A DNA stretch of 64,000 nucleotides from assembly GCA_030431455.1 (NCBI GenBank), contig JAUIJE010000013.1, positions 62,001 through 126,000 on the forward strand. Reading direction: 5' to 3'. Positions within the stretch are counted from its first letter, which is position 1. Each line of letters starts with the position of its first letter. Below are positions 3,978 through 7,497 of the stretch, piece after piece. Below the pieces are notes generated by a model. The model saw nothing but the letters and a program-made list of their open reading frames with translations. It did not search any database and was not told where the DNA came from. The translations under genes were made by a program, and so were the position numbers. This stretch comes from a bacterium. Lineage in GTDB: Bacteria; Myxococcota; UBA727; JAUIJE01.

Positions 3978-4838
3978 ATGCTCGATTTGAAAAAACAGCT
4001 TTTGCAGGCCGGCCTGGTCACCGAACAGCAGGTGGAAAAGGTCGAACAGGAAGAGGCCGAAGCCCGCGAAAAAAAACGCCAGCGCCGGGCGGCGCAAAAG
4101 GCCCGGGAGAAGGGCGGCCCCGCCAAGGGGGGCAAAGGCAAGGGCAAGGGCCCGCGCAAAGGCAAAGGCGGCGGCCGGGGCAAAGGCAAGGGCAACCCCG
4201 AGGCGGCCGAGGGCAAAGACCGGCCCGACGACGCGACCCTGTGGGCGCGCCGGATCGAAAAGCTCGCCCAAGAGGGCCGCACCGAGCAGTACGAGGTCAT
4301 TCGCAAGTGGGTGGACAAGACCCGCCTCGACAAGGCGGGTGAGCTCCCGAGCGAAAAGGCCGAGCGCTTCTTTTTCGAAAAAGGGGACAAGCAGGTGGGC
4401 TGGCTCACCGTCGAGCCGGACCTGATCGAGAAGCTCAAGGCCGGCCAAGCCGGGGTCATCGCCTACGTCGGGTTCAACGGCATGAACCACTGCGCGGTCC
4501 CGCGCGACGTGTGCATCGACGTGCACAAGGTGCGGCCCGAGTTCTTGCGGGCCCTGGCCGACTACGAGTTTGCGCTGTTGCCGATCCTCACCGGCAAAGA
4601 CCGGCGCAAAAAAGAGCGCGCGGACAAACAACCCGACGAGGAGGGGGCGGCGCCCGACGCGGCGCAGGCCGACGCGACCACGACGGACACACCCGCAGCG
4701 GACGCGCCGGTGGCGGACGCGCCGGTGGCGGACGCGCCCACGGCCTCGGCTCAGCCCGGGGGCGACGCCGCGGCGCAGGATGGACCGTCGGCGCCGACCA
4801 CGCAGGCGCCCCCCGACCCGTCCGCCTCGTCACAGTAG
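3978..4838 (+). CDS. DUF2058 (YaiL-like) nucleic-acid-associated protein
   Basis: The 286-residue product begins with MLDLKKQLLQAGLVTEQQVEK, the usual start of the DUF2058/YaiL family. Residues 25-80 are an extremely Lys/Gly/Arg-rich segment, as expected for nucleic-acid contact. The conserved globular part (about 85-215) contains EKLAQEGRTEQYEVIRKWV and GFNGMNHCAVPR. The last 70 residues are low-complexity Asp/Ala/Pro/Thr with a tandem VADAP repeat and are not part of the family core. The 3' end overlaps the end of the opposite-strand lipoprotein gene by 88 bases. That overlap falls within the low-complexity tail, so the tail may be a late extension. Confidence 0.85.
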   Translation: MLDLKKQLLQAGLVTEQQVEKVEQEEAEAREKKRQRRAAQKAREKGGPAKGGKGKGKGPRKGKGGGRGKGKGNPEAAEGKDRPDDATLWARRIEKLAQEGRTEQYEVIRKWVDKTRLDKAGELPSEKAERFFFEKGDKQVGWLTVEPDLIEKLKAGQAGVIAYVGFNGMNHCAVPRDVCIDVHKVRPEFLRALADYEFALLPILTGKDRRKKERADKQPDEEGAAPDAAQADATTTDTPAADAPVADAPVADAPTASAQPGGDAAAQDGPSAPTTQAPPDPSASSQ

Positions 4839-6007
4839 ACCCGGTGCCAGGCCAAACACCCCAGGGTGTCGTAGGCGCACAACTGGTAATAGGCCCCGCC
4901 CTCGTCGGCGCGGCATCCCCCGGTGGTCTCGCCCGCGGCCTCACACTCCGACAACGCGCAGTCTTGGGCCCGGCACGCGGGTTCGCCGTCGACGTAGACG
5001 CATCGCTCGCCGGGGTCGCAGAAGTTCTCCTGCCACTTGGCGCACCCGGCGTAGGCGGCATTTTCGCAACGAAGCACAAAATGGCCCCGGCCGTCTGACC
5101 CACACGTGGCCGGGCCGTTGAGGTCACACTCGTCGGCGCAGGTGCACGCCGAGCAGTCCTCGTCGCGGCCGAGCATCTCGTTGCAGGCCTCGCACACGCA
5201 GCGGTCGTCGTCTTCACAGGTCGAGAAGTCGCGCTCGTCACAATGCTCTTGCAGCCGGCCGGTGCCGCAGCCGTTGGTCCCGCCCCCGCCGAACTGGGTG
5301 GCCACCGCCCAGGTGGTGCAGGTCAACAGGTCACCCCCCGCTTCGGTGCAACACGGCCGGATGCGGGCGTTGCAGCGCTGGATGCACGCGGTGCCCCGGC
5401 ACGCGCCGTCCTCGCCGAGGGGGCAGGAGTAAAAACACGCGTCATGTTCGGCACAGCAATAGGACACGTCCTGCACGCCCTTGGCCGGGGTGAAGGCGAC
5501 CCCGACCCAACCGGTGCAGATCTGGTCGCCCTGGACCCGCGGAAGTTCGCGGCAGTCGGCCCGGGCCTGCGCGTCCCGGGGGCGCTGCCACCCCGCCAAC
5601 AATGCCAATGCACGGTCTTGGCCAAACGGGGCAAAGCCGGTGGCCTCGACCGCGCCCCCGTCGCCGTCGCCGCGCTCGCAACCGGGCTCTTGGAGGCAGG
5701 CCGCGCGCAAGCGAGCCGCGGCGTAGACCAAGGGGCCCATCAGCGCCGCGGTGTGCAGGGCCGCGGGCACCTGGCCCCGGGTCACGTCGTCGTCGCCGAT
5801 GCGCAACGCGAGCGCGCCGTCCTCGAGGTGGGCCCGCGCGAAGGGGGTGGGCGCGTCGGCGCCGGCCTGGAACACGGTCGCGCGGAGCCCGTCGCCCCGG
5901 CCTTGCACCACCACCGCGACCCCGTCGTGGGCGAACGCCCAGCGGGCCGCGTCGTCGGTGCACCCGGCCAGGCAAAGGACCCCCAAAGAGACAAGCATCG
6001 CCCGCAT
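4751..6007 (-). CDS. Cys-rich lipoprotein with phospholipase A2 active-site motif
   Basis: This 418-residue protein starts at the ATG at 6007 because a lipoprotein signal follows immediately (MRAMLVSLGVLCLAGC, lipobox Cys16). Residues 161-222 hold a dense cysteine cluster with CCAEHDAC at 184-191. It fits the PROSITE phospholipase A2 histidine signature (C-C-x-x-H-x-x-C), with His188 followed by Asp189, and the next residues (FYSC) resemble group XII-type enzymes. The C-terminal 200 residues are a string of Cys-rich modules. It is predicted to be anchored in the envelope or surface-exposed. A calcium-binding glycine loop is not obvious, so catalysis is unproven. The frame stays open upstream to 6157, but that stretch has no signal. 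Confidence 0.8.
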   Translation of the reverse strand: MRAMLVSLGVLCLAGCTDDAARWAFAHDGVAVVVQGRGDGLRATVFQAGADAPTPFARAHLEDGALALRIGDDDVTRGQVPAALHTAALMGPLVYAAARLRAACLQEPGCERGDGDGGAVEATGFAPFGQDRALALLAGWQRPRDAQARADCRELPRVQGDQICTGWVGVAFTPAKGVQDVSYCCAEHDACFYSCPLGEDGACRGTACIQRCNARIRPCCTEAGGDLLTCTTWAVATQFGGGGTNGCGTGRLQEHCDERDFSTCEDDDRCVCEACNEMLGRDEDCSACTCADECDLNGPATCGSDGRGHFVLRCENAAYAGCAKWQENFCDPGERCVYVDGEPACRAQDCALSECEAAGETTGGCRADEGGAYYQLCAYDTLGCLAWHRVYCDEADGSGGACVVGADGPSCAAASPPG

Positions 6008-6102: not shown

Positions 6103-7497
6103 GTGCTGCGCGTCGCCGGCCCCGTCCTGTCTGCACTCGTGTGCGCGGGCCTCGCACCCGGTTGCGACGGCGTCGAGCCGGCGCCCGCCTTCCCCCGCGC
6201 GCCCGCCGCCCCCGCCCCCGCCGACGACGACGACGAACGGCCGCCGCTGCCGCTGGGGTTTCGCGACCTGCACATCACCCCCGTGAGCGCGCCGGCCTTG
6301 ACCTCCCTGGGCTACGCCCTCGACCACGCCGGCGGCGTCTGCGCGATGACCGTGCGCGAGGGGGAGATGGTGCTCGCCACCGCCCTCGGGGGGCAACAGG
6401 GCCGCCTGTCGCTCGCGGTGGCGCCGGGTCCAGCCGCGCGCACGATCACGTTTTCGCTCTTGTGTGTGGCCGGGGACGCGCGGGTCGAACACGAGAGCGC
6501 GGTGACCTACCCCGCGGTGCCCGCGCTCGACCTCGACCCGGTCGTCGCCCCGCCGGGCACGCCGCGCACCCTGTGCTGGTCGACGACGGGGGCCGCGACC
6601 TGCAGCGCGGGGCTGCTCGACGACGACGGCCAGGTCGTGGCCGGCATCGCCTCCGACGTGCCCGGGGGCAACGCGTGCCGCACGTTTGTGCCCGCGGTGT
6701 CCGGCCAGGTCGGGGTCGCGTGTCGCCAGGGCACGTTTGACCTCGTGGCCCAGCGGCCGCTGGTGAGCGGGACCGGGGCCCTGCGCCTCGAGGTTGTGCC
6801 CGCCGCGCTCGATCGCCCCGGCCGCGTGCACGTGGCCTACGAAGGCGCAGGGGCGAGCACGTGCGACCTGCGCGCGGGCGAGGCGGTGGTGGCCACGGGC
6901 CTGTCCGGCGCCGCCGACGTCGAGCTGGCCGCGAGCACGCCGGTGGATTTGGTCTGCGACGGCGCGACCGTGGCCAGCCGGTGGGTGGCGGTGGGGCCGG
7001 AGATTTTGCATTTGTCCGCGTATGTCGATCGCGCCCTCGACGAGGTCATGGTGACCTGGCAGGCCCCGGGGGCGACCCAATGCAGCCTGCACGCCGACGA
7101 CGGGACCGCGGCCCGGGTGCTCTCCACCTTGGGGCCCGCGGGGTCACGAACGATCACCTGGCCCCTCGGGGGCGTGCCCGCGCTCGATCTCGCGCTCGCG
7201 TGTTTCGCCCCGGGGCAAAGCGACGTGACCGAACACGCCGCGCCGGTGCCCCACCTCGTCGAGGTCGCCACCACCCCGCGGCCCTGGGGCGTCGATGTGT
7301 GCTACCAGGCGACCGGCTTGGTCGACGGGGGGTGCGCGCTGCACGAGCCCGGCGTGGTGTATCTCTACCCCCTCCCGGTGCAGGGCTGCGCCGAGGTCGA
7401 GCTGTCCGCCAGCAGCGGCGCGCTTTTGTATTGTTCCGGCACCAACGGGTATGTTGCCCAAGAGGTCTTTCTCGACGTAGACGCCCCCGGGACGTGA
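6103..7497 (+). CDS. Exported lipoprotein of unknown function
   Basis: The 464-residue product has a GTG start and an N-terminal hydrophobic stretch ending in a lipobox-like LAPGC (Cys21). A Pro/Ala linker and an acidic DDDD stretch follow. The rest looks beta-rich, with regularly spaced cysteine pairs (CWSTTGAATC, CDLRAGE, CSLHAD, CYQATGLVDGGC) suggesting four or so similar beta-sandwich units of about 90 residues, each with a disulfide. I do not recognise a family. It is divergent from the phospholipase-like lipoprotein, with 95 bases between starts, so the two could share a regulatory region. It precedes the pseudo-receiver gene by 9 bases. Confidence 0.75.
   Translation: MLRVAGPVLSALVCAGLAPGCDGVEPAPAFPRAPAAPAPADDDDERPPLPLGFRDLHITPVSAPALTSLGYALDHAGGVCAMTVREGEMVLATALGGQQGRLSLAVAPGPAARTITFSLLCVAGDARVEHESAVTYPAVPALDLDPVVAPPGTPRTLCWSTTGAATCSAGLLDDDGQVVAGIASDVPGGNACRTFVPAVSGQVGVACRQGTFDLVAQRPLVSGTGALRLEVVPAALDRPGRVHVAYEGAGASTCDLRAGEAVVATGLSGAADVELAASTPVDLVCDGATVASRWVAVGPEILHLSAYVDRALDEVMVTWQAPGATQCSLHADDGTAARVLSTLGPAGSRTITWPLGGVPALDLALACFAPGQSDVTEHAAPVPHLVEVATTPRPWGVDVCYQATGLVDGGCALHEPGVVYLYPLPVQGCAEVELSASSGALLYCSGTNGYVAQEVFLDVDAPGT

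What the first reader, a model, noticed from the sequence alone, without database searches (positions are those of the whole stretch)
4751..6007. Bacterial surface lipoprotein with a phospholipase A2 His-Asp motif
CCAEHDAC (184-191) satisfies the phospholipase A2 histidine-site pattern and is followed by FYSC and further Cys, like group XII-type enzymes. The rest is Cys-rich modules. Secreted phospholipase A2 is rare in bacteria and would fit a predatory or membrane-degrading lifestyle.
Basis: partly seen in the sequence, partly recalled or inferred. Interest (0 to 1): 0.6.

Follow-up and report, generated by a model that had tools for sequence, protein, structure and literature searches.

The report
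Divergent phospholipase-A2-like domain in a lipoprotein
A bacterial surface-type lipoprotein carries a small, diverged version of the secreted phospholipase A2 core (active-site histidine and calcium aspartate kept, second catalytic aspartate replaced by asparagine, calcium loop degenerate), so it is probably a real relative of these fat-cutting enzymes, but whether it still cuts lipids is unproven.

Summary
The gene (complement 4751-6007, 418 aa) and the motif CCAEHDAC (184-191) are real. The gene has a clear lipobox (LAGC16), 40 cysteines and no full-length relative in the sampled genomes of its phylum. The motif alone is rare by chance (0.4% of shuffles of this protein; CCxxHDxC[FY] 3 in 100,000). 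A GTDB scan with an extended pattern gave 23 other bacterial genes that look like phospholipase A2 (PLA2); several match Pfam PLA2 models. A profile of 25 relatives, without this protein, scores P0001 at 22.9 bits against 5.8 for the best of 4,000 decoys. C164, C184/C185, C191, C212 and C219 fit the sPLA2 disulfide frame; H187 and D188 match H48/D49. Two classic features are missing: the C-G-x-G calcium loop reads C-T-G-W-V-G, and the Asp99 position is N213, as in some plant sPLA2s. The group XII reading is not supported. AlphaFold gives the helix pair, but with too little confidence for a fold match to count. Verdict: a divergent PLA2-like lipoprotein domain; homology likely (about 0.8), catalysis about even. 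Of moderate interest. In passing I found an un-modelled bacterial PLA2-like clade with invariant Asn at the Asp99 position, on lipoproteins and Rhs C-termini.

The parts
4751..6007 (-). Whole gene, 418 aa, PLA2-like Cys-rich lipoprotein (P0001)
   Evidence: GC by codon position
5960..6007 (-). Signal peptide and lipobox, residues 1-16 (MRAMLVSLGVLCLAGC)
   Evidence: sequence
5558..5959 (-). N-terminal region, residues 17-150, no recognised domain; not detectably related to the N-terminal regions of other PLA2-like proteins
5333..5530 (-). PLA2-like core, residues 160-225
   Evidence: profile match residues 174-224; model
5501..5518 (-). Degenerate calcium-loop position, residues 164-169 CTGWVG (C164 aligns with C29 of sPLA2)
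   Evidence: alignments
5435..5458 (-). His active-site motif CCAEHDAC, residues 184-191 (H187 = H48, D188 = D49)
5351..5374 (-). Second helix, C212-N-A-R-I-R-P-C219; N213 at the Asp99 position
5120..5320 (-). Linking Cys-rich region, residues 230-296
   Evidence: sequence
4970..5119 (-). C-terminal Cys module a, residues 297-346
   Evidence: internal alignment
4775..4933 (-). C-terminal Cys module b, residues 359-411 (repeat of module a)
   Evidence: internal alignment

Best explanation
The protein is exported and lipidated at C16 (inferred from the lipobox). It displays a compact PLA2-like domain (about residues 160-225) built on two helices cross-linked by disulfides C184-C219, C191-C212 and C164-C185 (inferred from alignment to the sPLA2 frame). 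H187 would activate water and D188 would hold calcium, with N213 in place of the usual Asp99 positioning H187, as in some plant sPLA2s. It would cleave sn-2 fatty acid from phospholipids of its own or a neighbour's outer membrane. The C-terminal tandem Cys modules would be a binding or spacer part. Shown: gene, lipobox, motif, profile match, cysteine spacing. Inferred: fold, calcium binding, catalysis, target. My estimates: homology to the PLA2 superfamily about 0.8; active lipase given homology about 0.55.
For: The extended pattern CCxxHDxC[FY]-x(16-26)-C[ND]xx(hydrophobic)xxC found 23 GTDB loci, all with the motif in an open Cys-rich frame. I estimate roughly one such match by chance. Ten relatives were scanned with Pfam. 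Four have at least one PLA2-clan match over its cut-off: L049 (PF00068 and PF05826 were below cut-off) is not among them; the four are L046 (PF00068, 1.8e-10), L052 (PF00068, 1.1e-8), L032 and L053 (PF05826) (the scanned order there is L033, L032, L046, L049, L052, L054, L057, L047, L061, L053). The 12-row profile A4, which excludes P0001, matches PDB PLA2s at up to 7e-8 (114 chains; every listed one is a PLA2 or PLA2 homologue). The 25-sequence profile without P0001 scores it at 22.9 bits (residues 174-224), against 5.8 for the best of 4,000 decoys. With Cys and motif residues fixed and the rest of residues 140-250 shuffled, only 0.2% of 3,000 decoys score as high. Subfamily profile A4 finds P0001 at 15.3 bits against 4.8 for decoys. 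hhalign to A3 and A4 gives E 0.001 and 0.0017. Helices 181-194 and 206-222 and a strand pair between them are modelled; eight of the eleven weak VIA-align rows are PLA2s. Plant sPLA2s have Asn, Ser or His at Asp99 and work (PMC6635587).
Against: P0001 itself matches nothing in Pfam, NCBIfam or PDB sequences. hhalign probabilities are only 15-21%. The calcium loop lacks the canonical glycines and Asp99 is Asn. The leave-one-out scores of other members (33-70 bits) are well above 22.9. The model is weak (mean pLDDT 57.7), was guided by the relatives' alignment, and Foldseek lists no PLA2 for it at E up to 10. The family was collected with a pattern sharing ten positions with P0001, so part of the profile score is circular.
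Confidence: 0.5

Rival explanations
1. A PLA2-fold domain that has lost catalysis and now binds lipid or protein, like the known inactive PLA2 homologues; the lipoprotein is a surface binding or structural protein.
For: Degenerate calcium loop and Asn at the Asp99 position; F192 at the Tyr52 position; singleton without relatives in sampled genomes of the phylum.
Against: H187 and D188, the residues that inactive homologues most often lose (background knowledge), are kept. Other domains with Asn at this position sit at Rhs-type C-termini (L050, L051, L064, L068), a position normally held by active toxins.
Confidence: 0.3
2. No relation to PLA2: a Cys-rich lipoprotein of small disulfide modules in which CCxxHDxC arose by chance or convergence.
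For: 40 Cys in 418 aa make Cys patterns cheap (0.4% of shuffles carry the PROSITE-like pattern); no database match; Foldseek finds no PLA2 fold.
Against: Scores above all 4,000 decoys with a profile built without it and above 99.8% of decoys that keep motif and Cys; C212-N-xx-I-xx-C219 at the right spacing; two helices predicted at the right places even without an alignment, though at pLDDT under 60.
Confidence: 0.2
3. A true group XII-type sPLA2.
For: HDACFYSC matches the HDxCYxxC signature seen in the PF06951 relatives of this phylum.
Against: No PF06951 hit in this genome; a profile of seven group XII-like proteins from the phylum does not rank P0001 among its best decoys; the Cys-Asp that follows in group XII is C203-R204 here.
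Confidence: 0.04

Closest known systems
Secreted PLA2 superfamily, groups I/II/V and plant XI (Pfam PF00068; PDB 2wg7 putative plant enzyme)
   Same: CCxxHDxC[YF] helix, Cys pair C212/C219 with C98/C105 spacing, upstream C164 at the C29 position, VxDV before the CC; Asn at the Asp99 position as in some plant enzymes (PMC6635587)
   Different: No canonical C-G-x-G calcium loop, only about 20 residues between C191 and C212, no Pfam score, lipid-anchored and fused to Cys modules
Bacterial PLA2-like domains with a calcium loop and mostly Cys-Asp, many at the C-termini of Rhs-type proteins (A4: L046-L049, L052, L053, L055, L059, L060, L063, L065, L067)
   Same: Best profile match of the subfamilies tested (15.3 bits)
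   Different: Eleven of the twelve keep Asp at the Asp99 position; several are Rhs-type fusions
Bacterial PLA2-like domains with Cys-Asn (A3: L033, L050, L051, L054, L056-L058, L061, L062, L064, L066, L068)
   Same: Asn at the Asp99 position; L033, L057, L061 and the related L081 look like lipobox proteins with an N-terminal region before the domain, like P0001
   Different: Most carry PGCD or a similar GC[DN] in place of the loop, and all have an invariant W in an NxC...SW stretch that P0001 lacks; the A3 profile does not reach P0001 by hmmsearch
Tox-PLA2 of polymorphic toxins (PMC3482391)
   Same: PLA2-type domain in bacterial exported proteins
   Different: Tox-PLA2 is defined by DxC[ST] and CxxHxxxYxN, which P0001 does not have; P0001 is not at a toxin tip
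PLA2G12 / group XII (PF06951)
   Same: HDxC[FY]xxC
   Different: No profile match; next Cys is followed by Arg, not Asp

Membership tests
Secreted PLA2 superfamily (PF00068) | His active-site motif CCxxHDxC | tested here: met
   residues 184-191
Secreted PLA2 superfamily (PF00068) | Calcium loop C-G-x-G(-G) | tested here: not met
   C164-T-G-W-V-G
Secreted PLA2 superfamily (PF00068) | Asp99 of the His-Asp dyad | tested here: not met
   N213 in aligned position; Asn occurs in active plant sPLA2s (PMC6635587)
Secreted PLA2 superfamily (PF00068) | Cys frame C29, C44, C45, C51, C98, C105 | tested here: met
   C164, C184, C185, C191, C212, C219 are invariant columns of the alignments; five of these six positions were also required by the search pattern
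Secreted PLA2 superfamily (PF00068) | Score over the Pfam cut-off | tested here: not met
   no match at E up to 10; none in the genome, (control genomes also silent)
Secreted PLA2 superfamily (PF00068) | Antiparallel helix pair and PLA2 fold | tested here: inconclusive
   helices predicted at the right places, low confidence, weak PLA2 rows only
Secreted PLA2 superfamily (PF00068) | Calcium-dependent sn-2 hydrolysis | not testable with these tools
   needs an enzyme assay
Group XII PLA2 (PF06951) | Profile match | tested here: not met
Group XII PLA2 (PF06951) | Cys-Asp after HDxCYxxC | tested here: not met
   C203-R204
Tox-PLA2 of polymorphic toxins | CxxHxxxYxN | tested here: not met
   sequence is CCAEHDACFYS; definition from PMC3482391
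Bacterial lipoproteins | Signal peptide with lipobox Cys | tested here: met
   LAGC16 by inspection; no signal-peptide predictor was run

The most novel reading that the evidence does not exclude
P0001 belongs to a hitherto unmodelled group of lipid-anchored bacterial phospholipases that work with a His-Asn pair and a non-canonical calcium site, spread over several phyla both as surface lipoproteins and as Rhs toxin tips.
Probability: 0.25. Interest if true: 0.55.

Novelty: new variant of a known kind. Interest (0 to 1): 0.33.

Why it matters
If it is an active enzyme, it adds a lipid-anchored, His-Asn sPLA2 variant to bacteria, where such enzymes are poorly known, and suggests that the asparagine variant described in plant sPLA2s also occurs in bacteria. 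It would also give a candidate membrane-attacking surface enzyme in a group that includes predators. If inactive, it is one more lipid-binding PLA2 relative.

Tried and rejected
Pfam, NCBIfam and PDB searches with P0001 gave nothing. Full-length and domain searches in 97 and 195 genomes of the phylum gave only chance matches such as L003-L031, which I inspected and discarded; plasmids gave none. A peptide-pattern scan of GTDB contigs found no relative. The C-terminal modules have no relatives in 193 genomes. The group XII reading failed. Foldseek on both models listed no PLA2. The A3 profile alone finds no PDB chain, and A3 does not reach P0001 by hmmsearch. L035, a DNA pattern hit, gave no protein in my ORF screen and was dropped. 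Searches used A1, which also contains P0001 itself, so its own hit is circular and not used as evidence.

Full report
What is there. The minus-strand ORF 6007-4751 gives a 418-residue protein: signal sequence and lipobox MRAMLVSLGVLCLAGC, an N-terminal region without recognised domain (17-150), the Cys-rich segment 160-225 with CCAEHDACFYSC, a linking Cys-rich stretch, and two related modules of about 50 residues (297-346 and 359-411). Codon-position GC supports this frame. The neighbours are ordinary: PPDK_N, a PAS/histidine kinase, a protein with a weak DUF2058 match overlapping its 3' end, an uncharacterised lipoprotein-like gene on the opposite strand upstream, a response-regulator-like protein, an HD-domain protein and GatB. 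No operon partner, immunity gene or secretion gene suggests a role.

The genome. The window lies on contig 21 of a 7.7 Mb genome. The protein is a singleton: no other copy in its genome and no full-length relative in the sampled genomes of the phylum.

Is the motif meaningful? Pfam, NCBIfam and PDB say nothing. Shuffles of the protein give the PROSITE-like pattern in 0.4% and CCxxHDxC[FY] in 0.003%. I therefore asked what else carries it. In the phylum, three other genomes do. One (L032) has a calcium-loop-like CGGG and CDRALETC, and its domain passes the PF05826 cut-off. One (L033) is a lipoprotein with CNTSVRQC. The third (L035) gave no protein. Adding a downstream C[ND]xx(hydrophobic)xxC, I scanned GTDB contigs and got 23 loci, each with the motif in an open frame; I estimate about one by chance. 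By record title they come from Planctomycetota, Armatimonadetes, Deltaproteobacteria, Betaproteobacteria, Nitrospirae, Binataceae, Acidobacteria, Sorangium, Actinomycetales and others.

They fall into two sorts. One (A4) has a GNYCGPG-type loop plus, in 11 of 12, Cys-Asp. Its profile, which excludes P0001, matches 114 PDB chains at E 0.001 or better, all of those listed being PLA2s or PLA2 homologues. The other (A3) mostly has PGCD, an invariant SW-type Trp and invariant Cys-Asn; the A3 sequences L054, L057 and L061 match no Pfam model at E up to 1. A3 and A4 are related (hhalign E 8.5e-10, probability 96.5).

P0001 against this family. A profile of 25 relatives without P0001 scores it at 22.9 bits over residues 174-224; the best of 4,000 decoys reaches 5.8. 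Since the relatives were chosen by a pattern, I also fixed the motif residues and all Cys and shuffled the rest of residues 140-250: 0.2% of 3,000 decoys do as well. So there is signal beyond the motif, but it is modest; other members score 33-70 bits in leave-one-out tests. By subfamily, A4 gives 15.3 bits, while A3 and the group XII-like profile give nothing above decoys. In the family register, C164, C184, C185, C191, C212 and C219 take the places of C29, C44, C45, C51, C98 and C105; H187 and D188 those of H48 and D49; F192 that of Tyr52; N213 that of Asp99; and CTGWVG that of the calcium loop. The sPLA2 residue numbers are from general knowledge of the family.

Structure. The single-sequence model is poor (mean pLDDT 43.5) but puts helices at 181-193 and 206-222. 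With the 23-row alignment the same helices and a short strand pair between them reach pLDDT about 67-86 by block, while the rest stays low. Foldseek lists no PLA2. VIA-align on Foldseek's 30 best chains gives eight PLA2 entries among eleven rows, at Z 2.0-2.6, which is weak. The alignment guides the model towards the relatives' fold, so this is compatibility rather than proof.

Function. Plant sPLA2s have Asn, Ser or His at the Asp99 position and are active (PMC6635587), so N213 does not exclude catalysis. The degenerate calcium loop is the stronger objection. Polymorphic toxins are known to use PLA2 domains (PMC3482391), and several Cys-Asn relatives sit at Rhs-type C-termini (L050, L051, L064, L068), which suggests that the Asn form can be functional. 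Lipoproteins with an N-terminal region followed by a Cys-Asn domain occur in L033, L057, L061 and L081, so a lipid-anchored PLA2-like protein is a recurring arrangement. The N-terminal regions of the relatives tested show no detectable relation to that of P0001.

Conclusion. The group XII label is not supported, and enzymatic activity and a predatory role are open. Because two defining sPLA2 features were tested and not met, I do not file it as a canonical sPLA2. I call it a divergent PLA2-like lipoprotein domain.

Noticed in passing
A3 loci: L033, L050, L051, L054, L056-L058, L061, L062, L064, L066, L068: A bacterial PLA2-like clade with invariant Asn at the Asp99 position, mostly PGCD in place of the calcium loop, and an invariant Trp. 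Of the four members tested, three have no Pfam match at E up to 1 and L033 has only a sub-threshold PF00068 hit at 0.46. Found as lipoproteins or secreted proteins and as Rhs-type C-termini; in 3 of 199 genomes of the phylum of one Acidobacteria locus.
   Followed up: partly
L036-L041 (and weaker L042): Group XII-like PLA2 proteins (PF06951 over cut-off) in six genomes of the same phylum, several with Cys-rich N-terminal extensions ahead of the domain.
   Followed up: partly
L057 and L081 (Sorangium cellulosum So ceGT47): Two separate lipoproteins in one genome, each with a short N-terminal region followed by the Cys-Asn PLA2-like domain.
   Followed up: no
L032 (G019): A 539-aa ORF with a calcium-loop-like CGGG, CCRSHDYC and CDRALETC followed by Cys-rich modules and an Ala-Asp-Gly repeat tail; its domain passes the PF05826 cut-off.
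   Followed up: no
window 4751-4838: The gene's 3' end overlaps the 3' end of the convergent gene 3978-4838 by 88 bases.
   Followed up: no
window 6103-7497 +: Uncharacterised Cys-containing, probably exported protein divergently transcribed from the PLA2-like gene, no Pfam match.
   Followed up: no
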